Source: an uncultured Bacilli bacterium
GTDB taxonomy: Bacteria > Bacillota_I > Bacilli_A > RF39 > UBA660
Direction of reading: 5' to 3'
Assembly: GCA_947628485.1 (NCBI GenBank)
Contig: CANRAA010000003.1
Span: forward strand, 1-41,888
Length of the DNA stretch: 41,888 nt
Of the stretch, positions 69 through 41,382 are shown one piece after another. The translations under genes were made by a program, and so were the position numbers. The first letter of the stretch is position 1, and every line of letters begins with the position of its first letter. The notes under the pieces are model-generated. The model made no database searches, was not told where the DNA came from, and saw only the letters and a list, made by a program, of their open reading frames with translations.

Positions 69-99
69 AATTTTAGAAAGAATTCTTTAGGAGGGTTTT

Positions 100-1086
100 A
101 TGTTAAAGGAAGTCAAAATTGAGTTAACTAACAGATGTATGCGTAATTGTTTTCATTGTTCAAGTCGAGCAACAAATGATAAAAAATATATTGAGGAACT
201 TTCCTTTAATGATGTCGCCAGAATTATTCTTGAGGCCAAAGAAATGGGCGCCGAAAGTGTTGTTTTTACCGGTGGTGAACCTTTAATGTATAAACACTTA
301 GATTTACTTATTGGGTTAGCTAAGGGTTTAGATTTAAAAACAACTATCTATACTTTTGCTTATAAAACTAAAGAAAATTTAAGAAAATATCGCCATTTAA
401 TAAACGCTGGTTTAGATAAAATTATTTATTCACTAGCCGATAATCTTTCTTTAGAAGAAGATGTTTCCTATTATACTAATGAAGAATTTTTTGATAAAGT
501 ATTTAAAGATAATAATGGTAAGTTAGGTTTTCATTATGCTTTAAGTAAAGACTCTTTTAGGAGTTTTCCAAGAGTTTTAAATTATACAATGGATGCTTTT
601 AAAGATAAACCTTATTTTGATAAGGTAAGTATTTTAAGATTTGTTCCCCATGGTAAAGGCACTTTTGATATGGATTTAAGTAAAAAAGAACTTTTAGAGT
701 TAAAGAAATTTTATTTAAATAGTTTATTTCAAGATAAAATAAGACTAGGTTCACCTTGGAATATTTTAGGTATTTCTAATAGTCCTTGTGTTATTGGCGA
801 TGAAATAATGATTATTGGTTTTGATGGGGTGGCTTATCCTTGTGATTCGGTTAAATATTTTAAGAATTTAGGAGTAAGCGGCAATATTAAAGATAATAGT
901 TTATTAGAGTTATATAATTCCGAATATTTTAAAAGTTTAAGAGAGGTTCAAAAGGAGTCTAGTTGCAGTGGTTGTGAAAATTATGACATTTGTAAAAGTG
1001 GTTGTTTAGGACAAAAAATTATTGATAGTCCTTATAAATCATTAAAAAGAATAATAAGGGAAAAAGATCCAAAGTGTATGAGGTAA
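100..1086 (+). CDS. Radical SAM / SPASM-domain protein
   Basis: Predicted radical S-adenosylmethionine enzyme of 328 aa. The cluster motif CMRNCFHC places the three ligands at C13, C17 and C20, and a GGEP SAM-binding motif lies near residue 58. The C-terminal third has the SPASM cysteine pattern: one Cys before a G-D-G stretch, then YPC, then CSGC, DIC, SGC and a last KC. This would hold two auxiliary Fe-S clusters. SPASM enzymes usually modify peptides, but some act on other substrates and the sequence does not reveal this one. The AGGAGGG site 5 nt upstream fixes the start. The next gene begins 1 nt after the stop, so the two are co-transcribed and probably act together. It is not a viperin: the C-terminal cysteine set and overall layout differ. 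Family is confident, substrate unknown. Confidence 0.85.
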   Translation: MLKEVKIELTNRCMRNCFHCSSRATNDKKYIEELSFNDVARIILEAKEMGAESVVFTGGEPLMYKHLDLLIGLAKGLDLKTTIYTFAYKTKENLRKYRHLINAGLDKIIYSLADNLSLEEDVSYYTNEEFFDKVFKDNNGKLGFHYALSKDSFRSFPRVLNYTMDAFKDKPYFDKVSILRFVPHGKGTFDMDLSKKELLELKKFYLNSLFQDKIRLGSPWNILGISNSPCVIGDEIMIIGFDGVAYPCDSVKYFKNLGVSGNIKDNSLLELYNSEYFKSLREVQKESSCSGCENYDICKSGCLGQKIIDSPYKSLKRIIREKDPKCMR

Positions 1087-1087
1087 A

Positions 1088-2032
1088 ATGAAAGTAAGAG
1101 AGGAAGTTTATAATTTATATTGGTATTTTGCCTGGGAAAGGCAAAATATCTTTTGGAAGAAATTAAAAGGTGAGGCATCTCCTTGGACTGATGACCCCAT
1201 ATTAAGAGAATACAAATTTTGTAATAGTTACAGAGTAAATGATCGCGTTAGTCAATATCTTCTTAAGAATGTTATTTATAATGGGAAGAAATATCGTAAA
1301 GAAGATATGTTATTTCGCATTATTCTATTTAAATTATTTAATAAAGAAAGTACATGGGAATTATTAATAAATAATTTTCAAGATATAACTTTAGAAAGTT
1401 TTAAGATGGAAGAATATTCTAAAGTTTTAACTAAGGCTAAAAGTGAAGGGATAAAACTATATAATGATGCCTACATTAGTTGTGCCAATAAAGCCTTTGG
1501 TTATAACTTCAAACACGATAATCATTTAGCCTTACTTCATAAAATGTTTTTGGAAGATTTGGTGCAAGATAAAATAATTAAATGTAAAAGTATGGAAGAG
1601 GCCTTTAATATCTTAAGAAGTTATCCTTTAATAGGTAACTTTATGGCTTATCAATTAGTAACGGATATTAACTACAGTGAAGTAGTGGACTTTAGAGAAG
1701 ATGAATTTACGGTTGCGGGTCCGGGTTCTATAAGAGGCATAAGGAAGTGTTTTACCAGTAGAGATGGTTTAAGTTATGAAGATATTATTCGTTATATGTA
1801 TGAAAATCAAGATAGGGAATTTAAAAGATTAGGACTTAATTTTAAAAGAATTGGAAATCGTCCTTTAGAACTTATTGATTGCCAAAATATCTTTTGTGAA
1901 CTAGATAAATATTGTCGTGAAAAGTTACCAAATTTAAAATCTAACCGAGTTAAGATTAAAAAGAAATATGTTCCGAAAGAAGATAAGATAGAGTATATGT
2001 ATCCGCCAAAGTGGCAGATAGAAATAAAATAA
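1088..2032 (+). CDS. 5-hmdU DNA kinase helical-domain family protein (nucleotide kinase domain-containing protein)
   Basis: 314 aa. The N-terminus (WYFAWERQNIFWKKLKG, then PWTDDPILREYKF, then YRVNDRVSQYLL) and later blocks (IGNFMAYQ near 185, AGPGSIRGIRK near 205, LIDCQNIFCELDKY near 270) match what I recall of the HMUDK_hel family. That family was first described as the helical domain of phage 5-hydroxymethyldeoxyuridine DNA kinases and is found alone in many bacteria. No Walker A loop is visible, so this protein is unlikely to be a kinase by itself. The AGPGS-RGI block resembles a helix-hairpin-helix loop of base-flipping glycosylases, which suggests DNA or nucleobase binding. It starts 1 nt after the radical SAM gene, so a joint role in base or nucleotide modification is a reasonable inference. 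The family name is from memory; function is not established. Confidence 0.65.
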   Translation: MKVREEVYNLYWYFAWERQNIFWKKLKGEASPWTDDPILREYKFCNSYRVNDRVSQYLLKNVIYNGKKYRKEDMLFRIILFKLFNKESTWELLINNFQDITLESFKMEEYSKVLTKAKSEGIKLYNDAYISCANKAFGYNFKHDNHLALLHKMFLEDLVQDKIIKCKSMEEAFNILRSYPLIGNFMAYQLVTDINYSEVVDFREDEFTVAGPGSIRGIRKCFTSRDGLSYEDIIRYMYENQDREFKRLGLNFKRIGNRPLELIDCQNIFCELDKYCREKLPNLKSNRVKIKKKYVPKEDKIEYMYPPKWQIEIK

Positions 2033-13463: not shown

Positions 13464-13541
13464 ATGTTAAATAAAGAAGGTTTAAAAAAAGAAATACCAA
13501 ATAATATCTATGTATCTAATTGGGAAGAAAAGCTAGGAGAA
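13464..13541 (+). repeat. Direct repeat, intact copy (pair of 12020-12096)
   Basis: The first ~78 bases of the dCTP-deaminase-like gene match 12020-12096, 44 of them without change. The repeat starts exactly at the ATG in both copies; upstream only a short GAGG/AGGAGG region is similar. Confidence 0.85.
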
Positions 13542-14018
13542 AATTACATTGAAGTAACTTTAGGTGATACTTTAAAAGTTTATGATACCCCTTTTTTGGA
13601 TGTGCAAAATCCGAGTCTAACTCAAGTAATTAAAATACCCGAGGAAGGCCTTATGTTAGAGCCTAATAAACTATATTTAGGAAGAACTAATGAATATACT
13701 AAAACTTATGGGTTTGTGCCTCTTTTATCAGGAATAACTGAACTGGCTAGTTTAGGAGTGGAAATTCATATTACCGCTGGTTTTGGTGATAATGGTTTTG
13801 AAGGAACTTGGACTTTGGAAATTATATGTGCTAATCCCACCATAGTTTATCCTAATATTCCGATAGGCAGAATTTATTATTACCCTTTAATAGGTAATGG
13901 GGAAAATGTTTACCGAGGAAAATATTTTGGACAAGTTGAAGCGACGGAGTCAAGGATGGCTAAAGAATATAAAAGGGTAAAAGTGTTAGAAAAGGAAGAA
14001 CATCATGCTCACAAATAA
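13464..14018 (+). CDS. dCTP deaminase-fold protein (single domain)
   Basis: 184 aa. It has the dCTP deaminase/dUTPase beta-barrel pattern: LYLGRTNEYTKTYGFVPLLSG, VEIHITAGFGDNGFEGTWTLEI, PNIPIGRIYYY, and a C-terminal YRGKYFGQ resembling the lid motif of Dcd. In E. coli Dcd numbering it keeps the catalytic Glu138 equivalent (TLE), but the G-R-S-S-L-A-R segment reads GITELAS, losing R110, S111 and R115. It overlaps by 14 bp a gene encoding two more such domains with the opposite losses, so the two may assemble into a hetero-trimer with a composite active site. Strong AGGAGG site. Enzymatic activity is an inference. Confidence 0.75.
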   Translation: MLNKEGLKKEIPNNIYVSNWEEKLGENYIEVTLGDTLKVYDTPFLDVQNPSLTQVIKIPEEGLMLEPNKLYLGRTNEYTKTYGFVPLLSGITELASLGVEIHITAGFGDNGFEGTWTLEIICANPTIVYPNIPIGRIYYYPLIGNGENVYRGKYFGQVEATESRMAKEYKRVKVLEKEEHHAHK

Positions 14019-15027
14019 AGAAATTAAAAAACAAATAGATTTAGGAAATATTCAAATAGATAATATGCTTCATGATGCTTTAGATAAACCCAATAGTTGT
14101 CGGATTACTTTAAGTGATGAATTATATTTTTATGATTATATGGTGGTAGATACTAAAGAAAGTTATGAATATCAAGAAGAAGTATTTAAAGGGGTTATTA
14201 ATAAATTAAGAAAAACAAGAATACCAAAAAGTGGTATGCTTTTAGAACCACATAAAGTTTATTTAGCTAAGACTAATGAGTATATTAAAACTAAAGGGTA
14301 TGTTCCTGTTATGCACGGAAGAACTTCTTTATCCTTACTAGGACTTAGTATTGAACTTACGAGTGGTTATGGTACCGATAATTATGATGGACCTTTTTTA
14401 CTTAGTATAATTTGTACGAAACCCACAATAATTTATCCTAATATTGAAGTGGGCAATTTAACATTCTTTAAAAGTTTAGATGAGAAAAGCCTAGAAATTG
14501 GGATGCTTAGTGGGGATGAAATAATGAAAAGAATAACTACAGGTGATATTATAATAAATCCTGATAATAAAATATTGGTAAATCCTAATTCGGTCAATTT
14601 AAGTTTAAATCCGAAGATGGGTTATTATACGGATCCCATTTTAGATATCAAAAAAGAAAATAAAGTAGAATATTTTAATATTGGAGAAGAAGGAACTATT
14701 TTGTATCCTGATAAAACTTATTTAGGAAGAACGAATGAGTGGACCGAGACCAATAATTTAATTCCGATGATTAGTGGGCGTAGTTCTTTAGGAAGACTTG
14801 GTTACCATGTGCATTGCTCTGGAGGTATGGGTTCAATTGGGTATAAAGGTTATTTTCATTTAGGAATAAGAACAACTCTTCCTATTCGGGTTTATAAAGA
14901 TATGCTTACTTGTCAAATATATTATTTTACACCGGAAGGAGAAATAGAAAATACTTATAATGGCAGTATGCAAAATAAATGTGATGATAAATTAGGAAGT
15001 ATGTCTTATAAATTATTAAAAAAATAA
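14005..15027 (+). CDS. Tandem dCTP deaminase-fold protein (two domains)
   Basis: 340 aa containing two Dcd-like domains, roughly residues 1-165 and 170-340. Domain 1 has MHGRTSLSLLGL and GYGTDNYDGPFLLSI, so the catalytic Glu position is Ser and the second Arg is lost. Domain 2 has ISGRSSLGRLGY, keeping R110, S111 and R115 equivalents, and GYKGYFHLGI, where Glu is Gly. Neither domain looks competent alone. With the single-domain partner encoded just upstream (14-bp overlap) the total is three domains, the number in a Dcd/dUTPase trimer. The likely role is in deoxynucleotide metabolism or sensing. The AAGGAAG ribosome site lies inside the preceding gene. Confidence 0.75.
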   Translation: MLTNKEIKKQIDLGNIQIDNMLHDALDKPNSCRITLSDELYFYDYMVVDTKESYEYQEEVFKGVINKLRKTRIPKSGMLLEPHKVYLAKTNEYIKTKGYVPVMHGRTSLSLLGLSIELTSGYGTDNYDGPFLLSIICTKPTIIYPNIEVGNLTFFKSLDEKSLEIGMLSGDEIMKRITTGDIIINPDNKILVNPNSVNLSLNPKMGYYTDPILDIKKENKVEYFNIGEEGTILYPDKTYLGRTNEWTETNNLIPMISGRSSLGRLGYHVHCSGGMGSIGYKGYFHLGIRTTLPIRVYKDMLTCQIYYFTPEGEIENTYNGSMQNKCDDKLGSMSYKLLKK

Positions 15028-21144: not shown

Positions 21145-22263
21145 ATGAAAAAGAAAGTATTAAATATTTTAGTAGTTATCTTAACAATAAGTATAATAGT
21201 TGAAGGTTATATCTGTTTTAAAAATGTTAAAAATAATAAAGTATTAGAAGATATCAAAACAGTAGATATATTTGATAATAAAGATAAGACCATATCTATA
21301 ATGGTCCAAGACCCCACAACCTTTGAATACCAATCAGATACAAGTAGAACTTCATGGCCCCAAAAGACAGAATACATATATGCTGGAACTAAATGTACTG
21401 ATGCGAGTGGAACAGATGTAGGAGATACAACACCATATTTAAAATTTGACGAAAGTGATTATACAGCAACCATAACAACTAAGAAAACAATCTATTGTAC
21501 CTTATACTTTGCTAATGGAAGACCAGCCTTAGAAGTGTTAAAGGCCAAAGGAGGAGATTACTATGCTGGAGGAGGAGACCATACAACAGTAGTGGATGAA
21601 TTGTACCGATTTAAAGGAACAGTAGGCCAAGTAGATAATAATTATATATGTTTAGGAGCATCCGAAAATCCTGATACATGTAAAGCAAATTCAGAAAACA
21701 TGTATCGAATAATCGGAGTCACAACAGATGGCAAACTAAAAGTGATAAAAGCTAAAAAATATGGAGATAATCAAAAATGGAATAGTAAAGCCTCCTCGGA
21801 TGTAAAATGGAATGCATCGACTTTATATACATACTTAAATAGTACATTTTATAATTCACTTAATGCAAGAATACAAGGATTAATAGATAACTATACATGG
21901 AAAATGGAATTAACAACATCAACACCAGGAACAACAACAGGAAATCAAGATGGAACAATACAAAATCATATAGGGTTAATGTATGGAAGTGATTATGTAA
22001 ATGCAGGAGCACAAGATAAAACAAATTGGTTATTCATACAAAATGGTTATAGTGGAAACCCAGCAGAGTTTGAATGGACAATGAGTAGTTGTGGCTACAA
22101 CGGCGGTGCCCGTGCGTGGTTTATGCGTACAGGCGGCTACTTTGGCGTGGAGCTTGTGAGCGACCCGTATGCAGTTCGTCCGGTCTTCTATCTGTTATCC
22201 ACAGTAGGATTAATAGGTGAAGGAACAGTATCTCAACCATACACTGTAACAACTATTAAATAA
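21145..22263 (+). CDS. Surface protein with DUF6273/FGE-like variable C-terminal domain
   Basis: 372 aa. An N-terminal membrane anchor (about 5-23) is followed by a Cys-pair repeat as in the previous gene, then a linker, and a C-terminal domain from about residue 130. Landmarks are VDELYRFKG, YICLG, MYRIIGVTTDGKLKVIKAKKYG, GLMYGSDYVNAG, NWLFIQNG, EWTMS, then AVRPVFYL. This order matches what I recall of DUF6273-type domains with a C-type-lectin/sulfatase-modifying-factor-like fold, whose final loops vary greatly. Between EWTMS and VRPVFYL the coding DNA abruptly becomes about 60% G+C. The likely role is extracellular ligand binding, which is an inference. Confidence 0.7.
   Translation: MKKKVLNILVVILTISIIVEGYICFKNVKNNKVLEDIKTVDIFDNKDKTISIMVQDPTTFEYQSDTSRTSWPQKTEYIYAGTKCTDASGTDVGDTTPYLKFDESDYTATITTKKTIYCTLYFANGRPALEVLKAKGGDYYAGGGDHTTVVDELYRFKGTVGQVDNNYICLGASENPDTCKANSENMYRIIGVTTDGKLKVIKAKKYGDNQKWNSKASSDVKWNASTLYTYLNSTFYNSLNARIQGLIDNYTWKMELTTSTPGTTTGNQDGTIQNHIGLMYGSDYVNAGAQDKTNWLFIQNGYSGNPAEFEWTMSSCGYNGGARAWFMRTGGYFGVELVSDPYAVRPVFYLLSTVGLIGEGTVSQPYTVTTIK
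22089..22188 (+). other. GC-rich hypervariable block, copy 1
   Basis: 60 of these 100 bases are G or C by hand count, against roughly 30% just outside. Codons such as GGC, GCG, CGT and CCG, rare elsewhere in this window, are concentrated here. Both edges coincide with protein motifs shared by three paralogues (EWTMS and VRPVFYL). Confidence 0.8.
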
Positions 22264-26868: not shown

Positions 26869-28334
26869 ATGGAAGAGAATAATATAAGTAATAATAACTT
26901 TAATAGAAAGAAAATGGTAAAAATAAGTATACTTGGCTTAGTAGCGTTAATTTTGGCAATCGGGGGGGGGTTACCTATGCCTACTTTACCCTAGGGGCAA
27001 TAAATAATTCAGAAGAAACAAATATAACAATTAAAACCGGAGCTAAAAAGAATATAAAATTAACTGGGGGAACAACAAATTATAAACTACATTTAGAAGT
27101 ATCTGATATGGCCCAGAATAAAATAAATTCAGTTTATTATGGGACAACAGATGTAAATAAAAATTATGAAACAGAAGAAGAAAAAGGAACAATAATATTA
27201 GGTAATATAGAAACTGAAGGAAGTTTAGTAGATGAATATACATGTAATGCCACAGTTAATATAGCATTAGATGGAGAAATGCAAAGTGCATTAAAAGATA
27301 ATGATTTAGTATTAGTAATAACTCAAGGAGAAACAACAAATACAATAGATTTATCAGAGGATATAACATCTCCTACTTTTTCGTTTGATTTAAAACAAAT
27401 AGAGCCAATTAAAGCTTACTTAAAATTTACAAATCAAGAAACCAATCAAAGTGGAATAGCCGGAAAAGAATTAAACATAACAATTAATATAAATGATTTT
27501 GCATGTGAGATAAAAAAGAGTGCTTTACCAGTATTAAAAAGTACCACATCACCAGAGTATTTAAAAGAAGCAGTAGAAAATGATGAACTTTTAAGATATG
27601 TAGGAACAGCAACCGATGCCAACGAACATAGATTAAATAATTATATATGTTTTGGAACAACTGATAAAAGTACATGCACAGAAAATCCCGATACATACAT
27701 GTATCGAATCATAGGAATAACAACCGAAAATGTAAATAGAGATTTAGGACTTGTTCCAAATCAAATAAAGATAATAAAAGCAACACCATCAAATACAAGC
27801 CAAGCATGGTCAACAGATTATGAAACAGATATAGATTGGGATAATGAGAGTAATACCGTAAAAATATATTTAAATAGCATATTCATGGAAACAATAACAA
27901 AGTTAGTAGGACCACATAATTGGAGTGATTTAATAACAAGTCAACAATGGTACAAAGGAGATAATACAAGTGCAAGTAGTAGTGAAATAGAAGTAAAAAC
28001 ATTAACAACAAGTAGTTATAAAATAGGCTTAATGTATGCCAGTGATTATATAAATGCAGGTCCAAATACTTATTCAGATAGTTTAAATAATTGGTTATTC
28101 ATCCAAAACGGCTGGAATGGAAATACTGAAGAAAATGAATGGACAATGAGTAGGTATGGCAAGAACAGCTACGACGGTTACAGTGCGTGGTATGTGGGGG
28201 CGGGCGCCACCTTGAACGATGCTGGTGTACATTGGGATACGCCTGTAGTCCGTCCCGTCTTCTATTTAATACCAAATATAACCTTAACAGGTGAAGGAAC
28301 AGAAACAAGTCCATTTATAATAAGTGAGGAGTAA
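26869..28334 (+). CDS. DUF6273-like surface protein, out of frame at a G9 tract
   Basis: The ATG at 26869 has an AAGGAG site and encodes a basic start plus a hydrophobic helix. The frame then runs into a run of nine G (26962-26970) and stops at a TAG about 25 nt later. The long frame that continues the protein (GVTYAYFTL..., to 28334) is offset. Seven or ten G would join them, and with seven the anchor aligns without gaps to the paralogue at 28339 (ILAIGGVTYAYF against ILSVVGVSYAFF). The downstream part has the same ectodomain and C-terminal lectin-like domain (YRIIGITTEN, GLMYASDYINAG, NWLFIQNG, EWTMS, VVRPVFYL). It is either phase-variable and off, or a homopolymer sequencing error. Confidence 0.75.
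28151..28260 (+). other. GC-rich hypervariable block, copy 2
   Basis: 63 of 110 bases are G or C by hand count (57%). Same position in the gene as copy 1, between EWTMS and VRPVFYL, but with a different amino acid sequence. Only GTGCGTGG and the flanks are shared. Confidence 0.8.
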
Positions 28335-28338
28335 GAAG

Positions 28339-29724
28339 ATGAATAAAAATAATAAAAGAATTATAATTATATCTACAATAGTATTAGTAATAGCCTTAAT
28401 TTTATCAGTAGTGGGAGTTTCTTATGCTTTCTTTAACTTACAAATAAATGGTGAAGATACAACAACTAAAATAGAAATATCAACGGGAGATGCTAATGGA
28501 ATAATATTATCAGGTAAAGTAGAAAACTTTCATATAACAGTAGATGCCGATGATATGGCTTATAATAATATGGGGTATTATTATGCAACAAATGAAGATA
28601 AAAATTATGTCAAAAATAAAGAAGATGGGATAAAAGAATTAGGAACAATAGAAATAAAGGGAGCATTAGAAAAACCAAATACATGTGATGCTACAATAAA
28701 AGTAGAGTTAACATCTAGTATATTAGAAAGTATTCAAGAAGGAGACTTTACCTTAGGTTTAATATATGGGAGTAATGAAACAGAAATAGATTTAAAGAAC
28801 ATACCTAGTGATGGAACAATTATAGAATTTGAACTTGATGGTAAAACAAGTCCATCATATATACAAGCCTATTTAAAATTAAATAATGCCAATAGAGATC
28901 AATCATATTTAGCAAGTCAAGAAATAAATGTAAAAGTAAATGTAGAAGATTTTATGTGTGAAGCAAGTGATGGCATACCACCACTTGAAATGTTAAAACA
29001 AACAGGTGGAGAAGTATTTGCAGGTGGAGGAGATCATACAACATTAGTGGATGAATTATATAGATATGTAGGGACATATGAAGAAGTTACAAACAACTAT
29101 ATATGTTTAGGGAAAACATTTAAAGATACATGTCAAGATGGAGAAAACATGTACAGGATAATTGGGATAACAGAAGATGGAAAATTAAAAGTAATAAAGG
29201 CAAAAAAATATGGAACAAATCAAAGATGGTTTAGTAGTAGTTCAAATAGTGAAAATTGGGGTTCAACAGAGGTATACACATATTTAAATAGTACATTTTA
29301 TAAATCATTAGATAAAAGAATACAAGGATTAATAGATAATTATACATGGAAAATGGAATATAGCAATAGTTATCCATGGGGGAGTGCAATAGTAACAAGT
29401 GAAGGAACAGTAACAGCAAATATAGGTTTAATTTATGCCAGTGATTATGTAAATGCATATAAAGATTTTTCGCTAGAAAACTGGTTATTTATTTCTCATG
29501 GATTGAATGAAAATGTAGAAGAAAACGAATGGACCATGAGTAGATATGGTTATTTCGGTGATGACGACACTTATCGTGCGTGGACTGAACTTACAGATGG
29601 ATTTATGCACGGGAGTCTTGTTGATAATGCGTTTGCTGTACGCCCTGTCTTTTACATAAAACCTAATATCACCTTATCTGGTGAAGGAACAGAAAGTAAT
29701 CCATTTATAATCCATACTAAATAA
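28339..29724 (+). CDS. Surface protein with DUF6273/FGE-like variable C-terminal domain
   Basis: 461 aa from the ATG at 28339 (GAGGAG site 28326-28331; the GTG at 28324 overlaps it and is rejected). One N-terminal membrane helix (about 7-30, ending SYAFF) is followed by a beta-rich ectodomain with a Cys pair (PNTCDA and DFMCEA) and a C-terminal domain with LYRYVG, YICLGK, MYRIIGITEDGKLKVIKAKKYG, GLIYASDYVNA, NWLFISHG, EWTMSRYG and VRPVFYIKP. It is a close paralogue of the gene just upstream and, in the C-terminal half, of the one at 21145. It probably binds an extracellular ligand. Second gene of the locus-2 operon, 4 nt after the first. Confidence 0.7.
   Translation: MNKNNKRIIIISTIVLVIALILSVVGVSYAFFNLQINGEDTTTKIEISTGDANGIILSGKVENFHITVDADDMAYNNMGYYYATNEDKNYVKNKEDGIKELGTIEIKGALEKPNTCDATIKVELTSSILESIQEGDFTLGLIYGSNETEIDLKNIPSDGTIIEFELDGKTSPSYIQAYLKLNNANRDQSYLASQEINVKVNVEDFMCEASDGIPPLEMLKQTGGEVFAGGGDHTTLVDELYRYVGTYEEVTNNYICLGKTFKDTCQDGENMYRIIGITEDGKLKVIKAKKYGTNQRWFSSSSNSENWGSTEVYTYLNSTFYKSLDKRIQGLIDNYTWKMEYSNSYPWGSAIVTSEGTVTANIGLIYASDYVNAYKDFSLENWLFISHGLNENVEENEWTMSRYGYFGDDDTYRAWTELTDGFMHGSLVDNAFAVRPVFYIKPNITLSGEGTESNPFIIHTK
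29541..29650 (+). other. GC-rich hypervariable block, copy 3
   Basis: 49 of 110 bases are G or C by hand count (45%), less extreme than copies 1 and 2 but clearly above the flanks. It encodes a third, unrelated loop sequence in the same place. Confidence 0.65.
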
Positions 29725-31906: not shown

Positions 31907-33316
31907 TTAATCAAAGAAATCTTCCCAAGGATCTTTTCTTTTTAATCTTTTTATAGCCATATCGATGGTTACTTCATTAGGTTTAATTTTATCGAGTTCG
32001 CTCCAAGATATCGGCATCGAAACACGACATTTTTTTCTTAATCTAATGGAGTAAGGGGCAACACTTGTGGATGATCTTGTGTTTCTAATCCAATCAATAA
32101 ATATTTTGCCTTTTCTTTTATTTTTTCTTATGTTACTGGTATATTTATCGGGCCAAGTCTTTTCCATTAAAAGGGCAATATTTTTGGCTGTTTTTCGAAA
32201 TTCTTCCCAACTTAATTTCATCTTTAGGGGTACCAAGATATGATAACCTTTACCGCCACTAGTCTTAAGATAGGATTTTAAATCTAACTTATCTAAAATA
32301 CTCTTTAAATCTTTAACACCTTCTCTAAGTTTTTTAATACTTAATTTTTCATCAGGATCTAAATCAAAAACCATAATATCAGGTTTTTCTAAAGATTTAA
32401 TTGTACTTTCCCAAATGTGAAATTCATAACTATTTCTTTGAACTTCAGATATTAAGCCTTCAACATTTTTAATGTAGTAGTAGTCTTCTTTTTCCTTTTC
32501 GCTATCTAAAATAATTTTACCGATGCCTTTATTGTTATTTTCAAAATGTTTTTGAAAAAAGATATCACCTCCATAACCATCAGGGCATCTTATCGTACTC
32601 GTAATACGGTTATTGAGGTATGGTAACATTCTCTTAGCTACTTTATGATAGTACTTAACAATATCCATCTTGGTAACTTTGGGATTTTTAAAAATAACTT
32701 TACTCGGACTAGATATTTCAATATTATCCACAATATTTTCTTTTAAATTGGTCTTGGTTTTAATAATGTTATCTGCTATTTCTTGCATAGTCCGGTTAGT
32801 TTTAATACTTTTATTTAGTTTGGTAATATCTTTATATTCTAAATAATTGTCTTTTTCTTTAATTAAAAGCCAAGATTCACTATCATTAGGAAGTTTAATT
32901 AAAGTCCATTTTCCTTTTAATCTTTTACCATAAAGGATAAATTTAAACATTTTAATCTTAAAATTTTTATTTATTTTAGTAATGGGTTCCCAAAAGCCTT
33001 CATCCCAAAGCATGACAGTGCCACCCCCATATTCACCTTTCGGAATAGTTCCTTCAAAATTACGATAACTTAAAGGATGATCTTCCACCATAATGGCTAA
33101 CCTTTTATCTTTAGGGTTATATGATGGCCCTTTCGGAACAGCCCAACTTTTTAAAGTACCTTCCCATTCTAACCGAAAATCATAATGATCTTTCCTGGCC
33201 AGATGATGTTGGACAACAAATCTTAATTTTTTATCTTTTTTGTTTTCTACTTTCCCTTTAGGTTCTTTCGTTTTCTTAAAATCTCTTTTTGCATTATATT
33301 TATCTAAATTTGCCAT
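31907..33316 (-). CDS. LigD-like protein: 3'-phosphoesterase plus primase-polymerase, no ligase domain
   Basis: 469 aa from the ATG at 33316 (GAGGG just upstream; the ATG at 33328 has no site). The N-terminal phosphoesterase domain (about 25-155) has FVVQHHLARKDHYDFRLEW, SWAVPKGPS, EDHPLSYRNFEGTIPKGEYG, GTVMLWDEG and GKWTLIK. The C-terminal archaeo-eukaryotic-primase-type polymerase domain (about 210-469) has the metal residues in MVFDLDPDE, the catalytic KTSGGKGYHI and FIDWIRN with SVAPYSIR. In LigD these clean and extend ends during non-homologous end joining. The ATP-dependent ligase domain is absent, and no Ku gene is in the window. A TATAAT (minus strand, near 33354-33359) is a likely -10. 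Confidence 0.9.
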   Translation of the reverse strand: MANLDKYNAKRDFKKTKEPKGKVENKKDKKLRFVVQHHLARKDHYDFRLEWEGTLKSWAVPKGPSYNPKDKRLAIMVEDHPLSYRNFEGTIPKGEYGGGTVMLWDEGFWEPITKINKNFKIKMFKFILYGKRLKGKWTLIKLPNDSESWLLIKEKDNYLEYKDITKLNKSIKTNRTMQEIADNIIKTKTNLKENIVDNIEISSPSKVIFKNPKVTKMDIVKYYHKVAKRMLPYLNNRITSTIRCPDGYGGDIFFQKHFENNNKGIGKIILDSEKEKEDYYYIKNVEGLISEVQRNSYEFHIWESTIKSLEKPDIMVFDLDPDEKLSIKKLREGVKDLKSILDKLDLKSYLKTSGGKGYHILVPLKMKLSWEEFRKTAKNIALLMEKTWPDKYTSNIRKNKRKGKIFIDWIRNTRSSTSVAPYSIRLRKKCRVSMPISWSELDKIKPNEVTIDMAIKRLKRKDPWEDFFD

Positions 33317-33498
33317 AACATCCCTCATTTTTATTTTGATTTAATATTAAAAAATTATACTAGAGATAAAATATGTGTTATAATGGGATCACATCTTATA
33401 AATAGTAATAGTGTTTGGCAGTTTTTTTGTTAGTATTATTTTAAAAGCAAAAAAAATATGCTATACTTATTGTAGTAAGAAAAGTAAGGAAAAATTAG

Positions 33499-34049: not shown

Positions 34050-34141
34050 TTAAATTTTATGAAAATTTATTATTAGGAAAAAATAATAATTTGCATTCAC
34101 AAGATTTAAATGTTAAAGATTTATTTAGGAGTGAAAGTAAT

Positions 34142-35590
34142 ATGGAAAAGATAATAAAAAATAAAATAGATGCTATTTGGTTAGATTTTGCAAATGGGGG
34201 AATGACAGATCCATTATCAGTAATAAAACAAATGACTTATTTGTTATTTATAAAAGGACTAGATGAAGTTGAAACAAATAATGAGCAAACAGAACAATTA
34301 TTAGGAGTTAAATTTAACAGAATATTTGATGAGAAACATCAGGATTGTAGATGGAGTAAATTTAAAAATTTATCTGCTACAGAAATGTTTAATTTGATGT
34401 CAACTAAGATATTTCCTTTTATAAAAAATATGAAAACTGGTAAAAATTCTTCATTTTCTAAATATATGGAAAAAGCCATGTTTATGGTTCCTAGTGCATT
34501 AGTATTGGAAAAAGTTGTTACCAAATTGGATTCAATACCAATGAAAGATAGAGATACAAAAGGGGATATTTATGAGTATTTACTTTCTAAGTTATCAACT
34601 GCTGGAAGAAATGGTCAATTTAGGACACCAAGACACATTATAAAAATGATGGTTGAATTAGTTAAACCAACTCCAAATGATATTATATGCGATCCGGCAT
34701 GTGGTACAGGTGGCTTTTTATTAGAAGCAAGTGAATATTTAAGAAAAAATCATTCTGAATTATTTAATAGTAATAGTCAAAAACATCATTTTAATAATGA
34801 TATGTTTTATGGCTTTGACACGGATGATACAATGTTAAGTATTAGTGCTATGAATATGATTATGCATGGTATTGATAATCCCAATATTGAATATAAAGAT
34901 TCTGCATCAGTAGAAAATACAGATACAGATAAATATTCATTAATATTAGCCAATCCTCCATTTAAAGGATCTATTGATGAATCAACAATTTCCCCTTCTT
35001 TGTCTAAGATATGTAATACCAAGAAAACGGAATTATTATTCTTAGCGCTATTTATTAGATCATTAAAAATTGGTGGTAGATGTGCTTGTATTGTTCCAGA
35101 CGGTGTATTATTTGGGAGTAGTAATGCTCATAAAGCAATTCGAAAAGAAATAATAGAAAATAATAAGTTAGAGGCAATTATTTCTATGCCGAGTGGAGTA
35201 TTTGCGCCATATGCTGGTGTTCAAACAGCTGTTATGATATTTACTAAAACAACAACAGGGGGAACAGATAAAGTCTGGTTTTATGATATGACTGCAGATG
35301 GTTATAGTTTGGATGCTAAACGAATACCTATAAAAAATAATGATATTCCAGATATAATAGAAAGATATAATAATCTTGAAAAAGAAAATGATAGATCTAG
35401 AACTGATAAATCTTTCTTTGTTTCTAAAGAAGAAATTGTTAACAACAATTATTATTTATCAATAAATAAGTATAAAGAAATAATCCAAGAAAAAGTAGAA
35501 TACGAAAAACCTAAAGTAATACTTAAGCAAATAATGGATATGGAAGATGAATTTCAAAAGCAACTTAAAGAGTTAAAGGAGTTATTATAA
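34142..35590 (+). CDS. hsdM: Type I restriction-modification DNA methyltransferase
   Basis: 482 aa from the ATG at 34142, which follows an AGGAGTGA site; upstream TTG codons lack one. HsdM makes N6-methyladenine with HsdS and forms the core of the restriction complex. Seen here are the N-terminal helical domain, the TAGRNGQFRTPRHIIKMMVEL region, SAM motif I DPACGTGGFLLEAS, a FDTDDTMLSISAMNM helix and catalytic motif IV ANPPFKG. The C-terminal tail is coiled and contacts HsdS. Its stop overlaps the hsdS start (TAATG). Confidence 0.96.
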   Translation: MEKIIKNKIDAIWLDFANGGMTDPLSVIKQMTYLLFIKGLDEVETNNEQTEQLLGVKFNRIFDEKHQDCRWSKFKNLSATEMFNLMSTKIFPFIKNMKTGKNSSFSKYMEKAMFMVPSALVLEKVVTKLDSIPMKDRDTKGDIYEYLLSKLSTAGRNGQFRTPRHIIKMMVELVKPTPNDIICDPACGTGGFLLEASEYLRKNHSELFNSNSQKHHFNNDMFYGFDTDDTMLSISAMNMIMHGIDNPNIEYKDSASVENTDTDKYSLILANPPFKGSIDESTISPSLSKICNTKKTELLFLALFIRSLKIGGRCACIVPDGVLFGSSNAHKAIRKEIIENNKLEAIISMPSGVFAPYAGVQTAVMIFTKTTTGGTDKVWFYDMTADGYSLDAKRIPIKNNDIPDIIERYNNLEKENDRSRTDKSFFVSKEEIVNNNYYLSINKYKEIIQEKVEYEKPKVILKQIMDMEDEFQKQLKELKELL

Positions 35591-36780
35591 TGTCAAAAGT
35601 AGAAAAAGCAATAAGTGATTATCTATTTTTTCAGGAAGGACCTGGTATAAGAAATTATCAATACACTACTGAAGGAATTAAACTACTTAACGTTTCTAAT
35701 TTAACAAATGGAAATATAGATTTAAGTAACTCAAATAGATATATTTCTTTTAAAGATGGAAATGGTAAATATAAACATTTTTTGTGTGATGAAGGTGATT
35801 TAGTAATTGCAAGTTCGGGAATAAAAGTAGATTATTTTGATAAAAAAATGGGATTTATAAAAAAGGAAATGCTTCCATTATGTATGAATACTAGTACAAT
35901 TAGATTTAAATCATTAGACTCATCAGTCCTTAATTTAAAGTATTTTATGTATTATTTAAAAAGTAATCATTTTAAAAATCAGTTAAGACATAATATAACT
36001 GGTTCAGCCCAATTGAATTTTGGACCATCACATTTAAAAAAAATGAATTTTATTTATTATGATATAAAACGTCAAAAAGAAATAGTAAAAAAATTGGAAT
36101 GTATTAATAATTTGATTGAAATAAAGAAAAAACAAATAACTAAATTTGAAGAATTAATCAAATCCCAGTTTGTTGAGATGTTTGGTAATGAAAAAAAGTA
36201 TCCTAAAGAAGAATTAAAAGATAATATAGTAGAAATGTTTATTGGTCCTTTTGGAAGCGCTTTAAAAAATGAATTTTTTGTTTCAGAGAAAAATAAATCT
36301 TGCGTTGTGTATGAACAAAAACATGCTATTAACAAATACATTGGGGATTTTAGGTATGTAGATAAACAGAAGCATAATGAATTAAAAAGATTTGAAATAT
36401 TACCTGATGATATTATTGTTAGCTGTAGGGGAACAATAGGAGAAACTTATGTAATACCAAAAAATGCTCCACTTGGAATAATGCATCCCTCTATAATGAA
36501 AATTAGATTAAATAATAATAAGTATAATGCTACATTTTTTAATGAAATAATAAAGCAATATTTAAGTGATAGTTTAAGTCAAACAAATGGTGGAACAATA
36601 AAAATGGGAATTAAGGCATCTGATTTGAAAAAAATAAAATTTATACGACCAGAATTAAAAGAGCAGTTGAAATTTATAGATATTAAAAATAAGATCGATA
36701 AACAAAAATTTGATTTTGAAAAAAGTATGAAAAAATTAGAAGAAATACAGTCGGCATTAATGCAAGAGTACTTTGGATAA
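35590..36780 (+). CDS. hsdS: Type I restriction-modification specificity subunit
   Basis: 396 aa with two target-recognition domains (about 1-160 and 205-365), each followed by a coiled-coil spacer (KECINNLIEIKKKQITKFEELIKSQF and the C-terminal KIDKQKFDFEKSMKKLEEIQSALMQ) that sets the distance between the half sites. The second domain begins with IGPFGSALKNEFF, a common S-subunit signature. The sequence recognised cannot be predicted. There is only one hsdS and no inverted-repeat partner, so no sign of a shuffling specificity system. Complete and in frame. Confidence 0.93.
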   Translation: MSKVEKAISDYLFFQEGPGIRNYQYTTEGIKLLNVSNLTNGNIDLSNSNRYISFKDGNGKYKHFLCDEGDLVIASSGIKVDYFDKKMGFIKKEMLPLCMNTSTIRFKSLDSSVLNLKYFMYYLKSNHFKNQLRHNITGSAQLNFGPSHLKKMNFIYYDIKRQKEIVKKLECINNLIEIKKKQITKFEELIKSQFVEMFGNEKKYPKEELKDNIVEMFIGPFGSALKNEFFVSEKNKSCVVYEQKHAINKYIGDFRYVDKQKHNELKRFEILPDDIIVSCRGTIGETYVIPKNAPLGIMHPSIMKIRLNNNKYNATFFNEIIKQYLSDSLSQTNGGTIKMGIKASDLKKIKFIRPELKEQLKFIDIKNKIDKQKFDFEKSMKKLEEIQSALMQEYFG

Positions 36781-36907
36781 AAGTATTCATTTATAATTTA
36801 ATAATTTAGGTTAAATTAAATGAGGAATAGCATAAATTTTGGAATATAGCTAAAAAGTATATTGTATGATAAAATTGTATTGTAGTATTTTATGAGGTGG
36901 GGAAAGT

Positions 36908-39900
36908 ATGATATCAAATTTTGATTTTGTAGAAGATAATAGATTGAAAGATGTAAAAAATGCTTGTATTGTAGCGGAACAAGGATTAAAGGTGACTTCT
37001 ACAGTATGTGTTATAATGTCAAGGAAAGCTTTAGAATTGGGTGTAAAATGGGTATATGGTGTTGATGGAGAATTAACTGTGCCTTATGAGCAAACTTTAG
37101 CAACTTTAATTTATGATAAAAACTTTAAAAATATAATAGATCCCATCTTATTCAAAAAAATTATTTATATTCAAAAGTTAGGTAATCAAGCAGTTCATAG
37201 TAGCAAAAAATAAATAAGCAAGAAGCTGTTTTAGCACTTAAAAATCTTCATGATTTTATATTATGGATAACATATTTGTATTGTGATAAATATATAGAGC
37301 ATGAATTTAATGAAAGTATTATACCAAATCCAGAAAATAATATGTTATATGAAGAAATGCCAAACAATTTGTTAGGGAAACTAAATGAAAATGATAAAAC
37401 AATAGAACAATTACAAAATCAGTATAAGGATTCAAGAAAACAAAATACTATTAGTAGAAAAGAAAAACAAAGTTCAATTCCGTATGATATTAAAGATATT
37501 TCAGAATTTAAGACACGTAAACAATATATTGATTTGGAACTAGAAATAGCAGGATGGGAATTTAATAATAACATAGTTGAAGAAGAGCCTGTAATAGGTA
37601 TGCCTAATGCATCAGGTGATGGATTTGTAGATTATGTTTTAATGGGTGCAAATGGAAAGCCAGTGGGATTGGTCGAAGCAAAAAGAACTTCTAAAGATGC
37701 AAGAGTTGGTCAACAACAAGCAAAAATATATGCTGATTGTTTAGAAAAAAAATATAATCAAAGACCTATTATATTCTTTAGTAATGGATTTGACATTTTT
37801 ATGTGGGATGATTTAAATTATCCTTATAGAAAAGTATCTGGTTTTTATACTCAAGATGAATTACAGATGTTAATTGACAGAAGAACACAAAAAAAAGATT
37901 TAAAACATATTTCAATAGATGAGAATATAACTAATAGAACTTATCAACAAGAAGCAATAAAAGCTTATTGTGATGATTTAAATAATCATCAAAGGAAAGG
38001 GTTATTGGTAATGGCTACTGGAACAGGTAAAACAAGAACTGCAGTATCTATTGTTGATGTTTTAATAAATAATAATTGGATTAAAAATATACTATTTTTA
38101 GCTGATAGAGCTGAATTAGTAAAACAAGCAAAAAGAGCGTTTAATAAATTATTGCCATCTTTATCAACTATTAATTTAGTAAGTGATAAAGACAATGCTG
38201 AAAATGCAAGAATGGTGTTTTCTACGTATCAAACTATGATAAATGCTATTGATGACATAAAAACAAAAGATAACAAAAAGTTATTTACAGTTGGTCATTT
38301 TGATTTAATAATTGTTGATGAAGCTCACAGAAGTATTTATAAAAAATATCAAGCAATATTTGATTATTTTGATGGATATTTATTAGGTTTAACAGCTACG
38401 CCAAGAAGTGATATTGATAAAAATACATATAAAATATTTGAATTGCAAGATAATGTTCCTACATATTCATACGAATATGAAGAAGCTGTTGCAAATGGAT
38501 TTTTAGTTGATTATCATACTATAGAGTGTTCAACAAAATTTATTAGAGAGGGAATTAAGTATAATGAATTATCTGAAGAAGATAAAGAATCCTTTGAAGA
38601 TACATTTGCAAATAGTGAAGATGTAGTAGATACAGTTGAAGCTTCAGCAATAAATAGTTGGTTATTTAATGATGATACAATTGATAAAATATTAAATACA
38701 TTAATGGAGAAAGGACTAAAAGTTGAAAGTAATGATAAACTTGGTAAAACAATTATTTTTGCTAAGAATCATAAGCATGCTGAAGCCATAGAAAAAAGAT
38801 TTAATTTATTATATCCTCAATACAATGGTCATTTTGCTCGAGTAATAGATATACATACAAATTACTATTCATCATTGATAGAAGATTTTTCTGACAGTAC
38901 TAAAATGCCTCAAATAGCGATATCAGTTGATATGTTAGATACGGGAATAGATATTCCTGAAATATTAAATTTAGTATTCTTTAAAGAAGTTAAGTCAAAA
39001 GTTAAATTTTTACAAATGATTGGTAGAGGAACAAGACTTTGTCCTGATTTATTTGGGTTAGGTAAAGATAAAAAAGAATTTTATATATTTGATGCATGTC
39101 AAAACTTTGAGTTTTTTGAACAAAATCCTAAGGGTAAAGAATCAACTGTTGGCATTAGTCTTTCACAATTTATTTTTGAATTAAAAGTTGATATATTAAG
39201 AGAATTAGAAAAAGTAGAATATTTAAATGATGATGAATATATTAATTACAAAAATTTATTATTAGAAGAATTAGTTGATACAGTTAATTCCTTTAATACA
39301 TTAAGATTTGATGTAAGGCAAAGAATAAAATATGTTGAAAAATATAAAGAAGCTGTTAATTGGAATAACTTAACTGATTTAGCAGTTAAAGAAATAAAAG
39401 ATAATTTAACTTCTTTAATAGCTTCTAATGATAATGATGAATCAGCAAAGCAATTTGATAGATTGATGTTAGCTATTGAATTATCAAAAATGCTTAATAT
39501 AAAATATGAAAGAGAAATAAAACAATTAAATCATATTGGTGAGGGATTGACAAGACTTATGAATATTCCTCAAGTTCAAGTTAAGAAAGAAGATATTAAA
39601 AAAATATTAAAAGATAATTATATAGAAAGATCTGATATTATTGAAATTGATCGAATAAGAGATTCATTAAGAGATCTTATTAAATATCTTCCCCAAAAAA
39701 TTAGAAAAGATGTTTATACAGATTTTAATGATTATATAAATATTGTTGAAAAAGATGATAGAAAAATTGAACAAAAAGAATTATCAGATTATAAGAAAAA
39801 AGTTAATTTCTATTTAAAAAATCATGTGGATAATGAAATAATAAATAAAATAAGAAACAACGAAAAAATTAGTCAAGAAGAAATTAATAAACTTCAAGAT

Positions 39901-40257
39901 ATATTATTTAATGATTTAAACTCTAATAAAGAAGAATACAATATGAATTATAATAATGAATCTTTAGTTTTATTAGTAAGAAAAACAGTAGGATTATCCA
40001 AAGAGACCATTGATAAAGAATTTTCTAAGTATATAAATGAGAATGAGCTTAATGTAGAACAAACAAGATTTATAAATTTAATTAAAAATTATATTATGAA
40101 AAATGGTGTAATTGATAAAAAAATATTAAATGAAGATCCATTTACAAATTATGGCAGTATTCTTCAACTATTTGATGGTCAAATTAATTTAATTAAAATT
40201 TTAATTGCTATTATAGATCTTATTAATGTAAATGGTGAATTTAATCAAAACTTTTAA
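36908..40257 (+). CDS. hsdR: Type I restriction endonuclease subunit R, frameshifted
   Basis: One gene in two frames. 36908-37213 encodes the N-terminal DUF4145 region (ISNFDFVEDN, then KALELGVKWVYG, ending QAVHSSKK). It stops because the A run at 37205-37210 has six A; a seventh would continue as KINKQEAVLALKNLHDF into the frame running to 40257, giving about 1116 aa. The remainder has the nuclease core (DYVLMGANGKPVGLVEAK), translocase motifs ATGTGKTRTA, IIVDEAHRS, LTATPRSD and MIGRGTRLCPDLFG, and a C-terminal helical region. The TTG at 37276 is not a real start. The R subunit is therefore probably off, or a base is missing in the assembly, while methylation genes are intact. Confidence 0.9.
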
Positions 40258-40329: not shown

Positions 40330-41382
40330 ATGAAGAATAATGAAAAATGGAACATGGAATTATCTGAATATATTAAACAAAATGAACCTAGTCAAAAAGA
40401 AAAAGCTAAAATTTGGAAAACGGCAATTGGACTTCAAGATGTTGATGGATTAAAACCTTCACAATATTTAATAGAAACTGCTAAAGAACATATTGAAGGA
40501 AATATTAGTATTGATGAAGTAAAGAAAAGAATAGATGATTATTATAAAATAGAAAATAATCGTAAGTTAGAAAGCACTAGTGAAGAAGCTGATAAAGTTT
40601 CGGCTAGAATAACTGAAATTTTAAGTGAAAATAGTTTTAATTTTAATATTTTTGAATTAATTAGTATTCATTTAAGATTATTTAAAGGAATATATAAAGA
40701 AGCTGGTAAGATTAGAAATTATAATTTTACTAAAAAAGAATGGATTTTAAATGATGATACAGTAATATATTCTTCATTTAAAACTATAAAAGAAACTTTA
40801 GAGTATGATTTAGATCAAGAAAGAAATTTTTCATATAAAGATTTATCTTTAGAAGAATCAATAAAACACATTGCCAGATTTACCGCTAATATTTGGCAAG
40901 TACATCCTTTTTGTGAAGGAAATACAAGAACAACAGCGGTCTTTATCATAAAATATTTAAGAACATTTGGTTTTAAGATAAATGACGATGTATTTGCAGA
41001 AAATTCATGGTATTTTAGAAATTCATTAGTTAGAGCCAATTATAAAAATTTTGAAAAAAACATTTTTGAAGATACATCTTATTTAGAAAAGTTCTTCTTT
41101 AATTTATTAAGTGATACTAAATATGAACTTAAAAATAGATATATCCACATAGATTACAAGAATAAGAAATATAAGCCAAATTCAAATAATAAAAAGTATA
41201 CTTTAGAAGAACAAGCAATTATAAATATCATAAAACTAAATGAATCAATTAAACAAGAAGAAATTGCTAAGGAAATAAATAAATCACTTAGAACAGTAAA
41301 ATCTATAATGAAGGGAATGCAAGAGAAGGGTATGATTACTCGTATCGGTGGGAAGAAGAATGGTAAATGGATGGTTTTATAG
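40330..41382 (+). CDS. Fic-domain AMP-transferase-like protein with C-terminal winged helix
   Basis: 350 aa. The Fic core is about residues 75-265, with the active-site loop HPFCEGNTRTTAVF (catalytic His and Arg preserved), so a nucleotide transfer (usually AMP from ATP) to a hydroxyl side chain of a target protein is expected. The N-terminal 70 residues with GLKPSQYLIETAKEHIEGN and ISIDEVKKRIDDYY resemble a fused VbhA-type inhibitory region, but the classic S/T-x-x-x-E-G/N is not clean. The C-terminus (IKQEEIAKEINKSLRTVKSIM, MITRIGGKKNGKW) is a winged helix, suggesting DNA binding or autoregulation. Fic genes often sit beside type I restriction systems, as here. Confidence 0.88.
   Translation: MKNNEKWNMELSEYIKQNEPSQKEKAKIWKTAIGLQDVDGLKPSQYLIETAKEHIEGNISIDEVKKRIDDYYKIENNRKLESTSEEADKVSARITEILSENSFNFNIFELISIHLRLFKGIYKEAGKIRNYNFTKKEWILNDDTVIYSSFKTIKETLEYDLDQERNFSYKDLSLEESIKHIARFTANIWQVHPFCEGNTRTTAVFIIKYLRTFGFKINDDVFAENSWYFRNSLVRANYKNFEKNIFEDTSYLEKFFFNLLSDTKYELKNRYIHIDYKNKKYKPNSNNKKYTLEEQAIINIIKLNESIKQEEIAKEINKSLRTVKSIMKGMQEKGMITRIGGKKNGKWMVL

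What the first reader, a model, noticed from the sequence alone, without database searches (positions are those of the whole stretch)
100..2032. Coupled radical SAM/SPASM enzyme and 5-hmdU-kinase-helical-domain protein
Two genes 1 nt apart pair a seven-cysteine SPASM-type radical SAM enzyme with a P-loop-less protein that looks like the DNA/base-binding helical domain of phage thymidine hypermodification kinases. Neither a hydroxylase nor a kinase domain is present, so this is not the known phage pathway. It could be a stand-alone system that modifies DNA bases, tRNA or nucleotides, or a defence module. The pairing is seen; the role is inference.
Basis: partly seen in the sequence, partly recalled or inferred. 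Interest (0 to 1): 0.8.

Follow-up and report, generated by a model that had tools for sequence, protein, structure and literature searches.

The report
Paired radical-SAM and base-binding protein cassette
A two-gene mobile cassette in gut bacteria joins a radical enzyme to a relative of the base-handling part of a phage DNA-modifying kinase, and it probably modifies thymine-type bases or nucleotides, perhaps as phage defence, although this has not been tested.

Summary
Window 100-1086 encodes a radical SAM enzyme with a complete seven-cysteine SPASM motif. One nucleotide later, 1088-2032 encodes a full-length PF18723 (HMUDK_hel) protein (353 bits, cut-off 25) with no P-loop. The pair is not peculiar to this genome: 24 of 63 Bacillota-type HMUDK_hel loci in named genomes have the same radical SAM gene directly upstream, in many unrelated contexts. 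The two proteins co-diverge (Mantel r 0.94), and among the window's relatives the radical SAM gene was never seen without its partner. The other 39 loci lack it, so radical SAM is an add-on. Elsewhere the same family is joined to a 5-hmdU kinase, a thymidylate kinase (radical SAM gene next door), a glycosyltransferase or DUF1643. Its modelled fold matches the helical half of SP10 5-hmdU DNA kinase. I read the helical protein as a base-presenting subunit and the radical SAM enzyme as its catalyst, modifying a thymine-type base in DNA or nucleotides. Defence is plausible: relatives sit beside TIR, Nmad2 and CBASS genes, and a 2026 study validated 5-hmdU-kinase and thymidylate-synthase domains in defence. 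Enrichment of defence genes around the window-type pair itself is weak. Substrate and product are unknown.

The parts
89..95 (+). Shine-Dalgarno-like AGGAGGG before the radical SAM gene
   Evidence: read from sequence
100..1086 (+). radical SAM/SPASM enzyme gene, 328 aa
   Evidence: Pfam PF04055 57.5 bits and PF13186 39.8 bits; AlphaFold model pLDDT 82.9, best PDB fold matches PqqE, SuiB, BlsE, E 1.3e-11 to 2.8e-10
136..159 (+). CX3CX2C motif (C13, C17, C20), ligands of the SAM-binding [4Fe-4S] cluster
   Evidence: sequence; at least 90% conserved in 26 aligned homologues
787..1077 (+). SPASM region with seven cysteines C230, C248, C289, C292, C298, C302, C326 (auxiliary cluster sites)
   Evidence: Pfam PF13186; C230, C248, C298 and C302 invariant, C289, C292 and C326 at least 90% conserved
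1088..2032 (+). stand-alone HMUDK_hel (PF18723) protein gene, 314 aa
   Evidence: 353 bits against cut-off 25; model pLDDT 94.9; fold match to SP10 5-hmdU DNA kinase TM 0.83
1622..1654 (+). helix-hairpin-helix-like segment YPLIGNFMAYQ (aa 179-189) with invariant F185 and Q189
   Evidence: alignment of 63 sequences; the glycosylase resemblance is inference
1712..1738 (+). VAGPGSIRG segment (aa 209-217); G211, G213 and G217 invariant

Best explanation
The two genes form a mobile two-subunit base-modification cassette. The HMUDK_hel protein, whose fold is that of the helical half of phage 5-hmdU DNA kinase, binds and presents a thymine-type base (flipped out of DNA, or in a nucleotide). The SPASM radical SAM enzyme carries out a 5'-deoxyadenosyl-radical reaction on that base or on a group attached to it. 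The helical protein is an exchangeable presenter that other lineages couple to a kinase, a thymidylate kinase or a glycosyltransferase, and here to radical SAM. The likely benefit is anti-phage. Shown: both families, the conserved pairing, co-divergence, sporadic distribution, the exchange of partners, and the (predicted) fold. Inferred: physical interaction, the substrate, DNA rather than free nucleotide, the reaction, and the defence role.
For: PF18723 membership over the whole protein. Fold match to SP10 5-hmdU DNA kinase TM 0.83 and weaker matches to phage amino acid:DNA transferases (TM about 0.5, prob 1.0). Radical SAM gene immediately upstream in 24 of 63 Bacillota-type loci, mostly 0-12 nt apart. 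Co-divergence r 0.94, 0 of 2000 permutations. In 23 genomes of the genus the radical SAM gene occurs only where HMUDK_hel does. Partner exchange: PF18748 kinase fused (SBSphiC) or adjacent (SN1), thymidylate-kinase fusion with radical SAM next door (L115), glycosyltransferase fusion (L126), DUF1643 fusion (L113). ThyA-like, MazG-like and dCTP-deaminase-like genes recur beside relatives. TIR-Nmad2-HMUDK_hel-radical SAM operon in Parabacteroides. A 5-hydroxymethyluracil kinase domain was validated in an E. coli defence system (PMC13092281).
Against: 39 of 63 close relatives lack the radical SAM gene, and no residue separates paired from orphan helical proteins, so radical SAM is not needed for the core role. 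No thymidylate-synthase-type hydroxymethylase, kinase or ADDT gene was found in the genome, so the classical 5-hmdU substrate would not be made there. The radical SAM enzyme is not detectably related to the phage thymidine-pathway one. No clear defence-island signal around the window-type pair. The HhH-glycosylase resemblance is weak (E at least 0.28; no profile match).
Confidence: 0.48

Rival explanations
1. The pair makes a modified free nucleotide (antiviral chain terminator or signal), as viperins make ddhNTPs, with the helical protein holding a thymidylate-like nucleotide.
For: Weak PADLOC viperin-model matches (38 bits) and viperin among the fold matches; a thymidylate-kinase fusion sits beside a radical SAM gene in L115; MazG-like and TIR genes near relatives.
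Against: SPASM is not part of viperin; PqqE, SuiB and BlsE fit better; phage relatives of the helical protein belong to DNA modification pathways.
Confidence: 0.2
2. The radical SAM enzyme is a maturase that modifies a peptide or its partner protein, as many SPASM enzymes do.
For: The best family and fold matches are mostly peptide, protein or cofactor maturases.
Against: Little or no space for a conserved precursor peptide in several loci (38-109 nt upstream and -21 to 81 nt downstream in most same-genus loci); no residue distinguishes paired from orphan helical proteins.
Confidence: 0.1
3. The pair recognises and removes or attacks hypermodified thymine in invading phage DNA (type IV-like defence).
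For: The helical protein belongs to a family of thymidine-hypermodification proteins; sporadic, mobile distribution; no endogenous modification pathway seen.
Against: No nuclease or consistent effector in the pair; phage relatives make, not remove, the modification.
Confidence: 0.1
4. The pair is an oxygen-independent DNA repair system for thymine lesions, comparable in logic to spore photoproduct lyase.
For: Radical SAM enzymes can repair thymine in DNA (general knowledge); weak glycosylase-like fold matches; anaerobic gut hosts.
Against: Sporadic rather than core distribution (7 of 36 other same-genus genomes, none of 23 from other families in that set); no spore photoproduct lyase among the sequence matches shown.
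Confidence: 0.07

Closest known systems
Phage 5-hmdU DNA kinase (HMUDK; PF18748 + PF18723; SP10-type fusion, M6/SN1-type separate genes)
   Same: Full-length PF18723 half; fold match to SP10 kinase TM 0.83; 26% identity to the SN1 aGPT-Pplase1 protein, which is also PF18723
   Different: No kinase domain in the protein and none found in the genome; SPASM radical SAM partner instead
M6/SN1 phage thymidine hypermodification cassette (Nmad5, aGPT-Pplase1, kinase, rSAM, PLP enzyme, aGPT-Pplase2)
   Same: A PF18723 protein and a radical SAM enzyme encoded close together
   Different: The phage radical SAM protein is 480 aa and shares no detectable BLAST similarity with the window's; no hydroxymethylase, kinase or ADDT found here, and no PLP enzyme in the pair
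Validated E. coli defence system(s) with 5hmdUk, thymidylate synthase, dNMPk and NMAD domains (DefensePredictor, PMC13092281)
   Same: Contains a 5-hmdU kinase domain; relatives of the window protein sit beside ThyA-like and Nmad2 genes
   Different: No radical SAM is mentioned in that paper; the window pair lacks ThyA and Nmad
Prokaryotic viperins (pVip)
   Same: Radical SAM fold; weak model match (38 bits)
   Different: The window enzyme has a SPASM domain and closer matches to PqqE, SuiB and BlsE

Membership tests
PF18723 HMUDK_hel (formerly aGPT-Pplase1) | match over the whole model above the curated cut-off | tested here: met
   353 bits vs 25, positions 2-280 of 281
PF18723 HMUDK_hel (formerly aGPT-Pplase1) | same fold as a characterised member | tested here: met
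   SP10 5-hmdU DNA kinase TM 0.83, E 1.4e-14 (predicted structures on both sides)
5-hmdU DNA kinase (complete enzyme) | P-loop kinase domain, fused or encoded next door | tested here: not met
   no Walker A in the protein, no PF18748 match in the protein; no PF18748 match in the 90%-complete genome (no control rang)
SPASM radical SAM enzymes | CX3CX2C plus seven-cysteine SPASM pattern | tested here: met
SPASM radical SAM enzymes | membership of a named functional subgroup (NCBIfam equivalog) | tested here: not met
   best is PqqE, 61 bits vs cut-off 381; the generic SPASM domain model passes (34.7 vs 27)
Phage thymidine hypermodification pathway | dUMP hydroxymethylase of the thymidylate-synthase family | tested here: not met
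   no PF00303 match in own genome, controls rang in 9 of 14; ThyX is present; genome about 90% complete
Phage thymidine hypermodification pathway | amino acid:DNA transferase (PF18724) | tested here: inconclusive
   no match in own genome, but no control rang
Phage thymidine hypermodification pathway | homologous radical SAM enzyme | tested here: not met
   no BLASTP similarity to SN1_022; no phage match covers 80% of the query
Known anti-phage defence system | match of both proteins to PADLOC models | tested here: not met
   helical protein 0 families; radical SAM only weak pVip matches
Known anti-phage defence system | location in defence islands | tested here: inconclusive
   TIR/Nmad2/CBASS genes beside distant relatives; scattered candidate hits beside window-type pairs, no background rate measured
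Known anti-phage defence system | protection against phage | not testable with these tools
   needs plating assays
HhH-GPD DNA glycosylase superfamily | significant fold or profile match | tested here: inconclusive
   most top PDB matches are HhH glycosylases but E at least 0.28; no match to an Nth-type profile

The most novel reading that the evidence does not exclude
A bacterial, host-borne DNA hypermodification system in which a kinase-free HMUDK_hel protein presents ordinary thymine to a SPASM radical SAM enzyme, giving a new radical-made thymine derivative that protects against phage without any 5-hmdU intermediate.
Probability: 0.2. Interest if true: 0.88.

Novelty: new variant of a known kind. 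Interest (0 to 1): 0.62.

Why it matters
If right, base hypermodification of the phage type exists as a compact two-gene bacterial cassette that uses radical chemistry in place of phosphorylation. It would show that the helical half of 5-hmdU DNA kinase is a general base-presenting module, help explain the many orphan copies in gut Bacilli, and offer a tractable anaerobic enzyme pair. The partner-exchange pattern makes the function of PF18723, so far named only after its kinase, directly testable.

Tried and rejected
An effector hidden upstream of the contig start: rejected, because the sister genomes have an ABC exporter there and the window genome's own copy lies at the edge of contig C77. 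RiPP precursor next to the pair: little or no room in several loci. Fixed positions separating radical-SAM-paired from orphan helical proteins: none found. Profile link to Nth-type HhH glycosylases: none. M6-type radical SAM as a homologue: no similarity. Genes downstream (179-aa protein, ABC-F, DUF218): dropped as parts, since they come and go at the same site and a relative of the 179-aa protein occurs in a genome without the pair. Defence enrichment by PADLOC: scattered only. RNA fold after the pair: no better than shuffled. Key papers on thymidine hypermodification (PMC8989533, PMC5889632; also doi 10.1093/nar/gkt573) and on nucleotide-centric conflict systems (PMC4678834) are not held.

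Full report
Observation. The first passes the Pfam cut-offs for Radical_SAM and SPASM and carries the full seven-cysteine SPASM pattern, almost entirely conserved in 26 homologues. No NCBIfam equivalog comes near its cut-off. The second is PF18723 (HMUDK_hel) over its whole length, 353 bits against a cut-off of 25, with no other domain and no Walker A motif.

What PF18723 is. The Pfam name fits proteins like SBSphiC L182 (636 aa), in which a PF18748 kinase domain is fused to PF18723. In the M6-like phage SN1 the two halves are separate neighbouring genes, annotated aGPT-Pplase1 and P-loop kinase, followed by a radical SAM gene. PF18723 is thus the family also annotated as aGPT-Pplase1, and a PF18723 protein without a kinase domain is common in phages too. 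The window protein is 26% identical to the SN1 one. Its AlphaFold model (pLDDT 94.9) matches SP10 5-hmdU DNA kinase (TM 0.83), other HMUDK_hel proteins, and more weakly phage amino acid:DNA transferases. Against the PDB most of the top matches are HhH DNA glycosylases, but none is significant, and a profile comparison found nothing, so that link stays a lead.

The pair is real and mobile. In the window's genus eight genomes carry HMUDK_hel, the window's own included (7 of 36 others), at nine loci, and all nine have the radical SAM gene directly upstream. G393, of another genus in the family, has the helical gene without it. In the 23 genomes of the genus searched for the radical SAM gene it was found only in the five with HMUDK_hel, and at the same places. 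Of 63 Bacillota-type loci (one is labelled Saccharibacteria) 24 have the radical SAM gene upstream, most within 0-12 nt, and 39 do not; only one of those 39 has less than 1.2 kb of upstream sequence. On the tree of 96 helical proteins the label needs 9 changes against 27.5 for shuffled labels (quick tree, many open forks). Radical SAM and helical distances correlate at 0.94 (n 29, 0 of 2000 permutations). In several genomes lacking the pair the site between the ABC exporter and the acyl-CoA dehydratase activator-type genes is empty or holds other cargo, so it is a variable insertion site. GC content barely differs from the rest of the window (0.281 against 0.274).

Partner exchange. The helical module is fused to a thymidylate-kinase domain in viral contig L115, with a radical SAM gene (30% identical to the window's) next door; to a glycosyltransferase domain in L126 (837 aa); and to DUF1643 in cyanobacterial L113. 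A ThyA-like family occurs within five genes in 28 loci, a MazG-like family in 18 and DUF1643 in 14 (family names from annotation of members, and from Pfam for DUF1643). PGAP calls another neighbour family thymidylate synthase, but Pfam finds no domain in the copy tested, so I do not rely on it. On a Parabacteroides plasmid the order is TIR, Nmad2, HMUDK_hel, radical SAM. Other relatives sit near TIR genes or a CBASS-type phospholipase. This pattern is why I read the helical protein as a substrate-presenting subunit that works with different catalysts.

Why not the known phage pathway. The window genome (about 90% complete) has ThyX and no ThyA-family match, no PF18748 and no PF18724 match, although the last two searches had no ringing control. 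The phage radical SAM enzyme is not detectably related to the window's, and the window's has no full-length match in the phage collection. Two of its nearest full-length plasmid relatives outside this pairing lie in operons with SMEK-domain proteins.

Defence. For: a 2026 study lists a 5-hydroxymethyluracil kinase and a thymidylate synthase among domains newly validated in anti-phage defence, with an NMAD domain in the figure legend (PMC13092281); TIR, Nmad2 and CBASS neighbours of relatives; sporadic distribution. Against: no PADLOC model fits the pair; neighbours of window-type pairs show only scattered candidate families, not clearly more than neighbours of orphan copies, and no background rate was measured. 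One pair (L031) lies near a caspase-domain gene and a Ham1-family gene. I put defence at roughly 0.4 and base or nucleotide modification of some kind at roughly 0.7, split between DNA (best explanation) and free nucleotides (first rival).

Limits. All structural statements rest on predicted models. Tree support is moderate. Neighbour families came from simple ORF calling and BLAST clustering. Most genomes are metagenome-assembled. The central thymidine-hypermodification papers could not be read here, so statements about that pathway rest on annotation, on the short reports cited, and on general knowledge.

Noticed in passing
window 34091-40257: Type I restriction-modification system: HsdM (34091-35590), HsdS-like (35590-36780), a short ORF (36908-37213) and a restriction subunit (37276-40257), with a Fic-like protein at 40330-41382 (the Fic and HsdS labels are from reading the sequence).
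   Followed up: partly
window 31907-33328 (-): LigD-type phosphoesterase plus primase-polymerase protein without a ligase domain in the same protein.
   Followed up: partly
window 13464-15027: Two adjacent dCTP-deaminase-like (DCD) genes, the second with two DCD matches.
   Followed up: partly
L126 6450-8963 and L133: Viral-contig protein of 837 aa with a glycosyltransferase group 1 match in front of HMUDK_hel, next to a ThyA-like gene.
   Followed up: partly
L115 4935-10027: Viral-contig operon: small possible carrier protein, HTH, ImmA-like, unknown 271-aa protein, thymidylate-kinase::HMUDK_hel fusion, radical SAM.
   Followed up: partly
L018 4853-9495 and L129 6853-9943: Near-identical Bacteroidales operon TIR, Nmad2, HMUDK_hel, radical SAM, on a Parabacteroides plasmid and in an IMG/VR contig, near an integrase.
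   Followed up: partly
L031 218-7973: A second radical SAM/HMUDK_hel pair in genome G016 near genes for a caspase-domain protein, an unassigned 359-aa protein and a Ham1-family protein.
   Followed up: partly
L184, L185: Two near full-length radical SAM relatives outside this pairing follow SMEK-domain protein genes on alphaproteobacterial plasmids, which may be another conflict system.
   Followed up: no
L097-L113: Cyanobacterial HMUDK_hel genes often stand next to DUF1643 genes (fused in L113).
   Followed up: no
L011, L013 (G369 contig C58): An apparently broken HMUDK_hel gene with in-frame stops.
   Followed up: no
window 21145-22263, 27108-29724: Several probable surface proteins with shared segments; a DUF6273 match was found in the one tested.
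   Followed up: no
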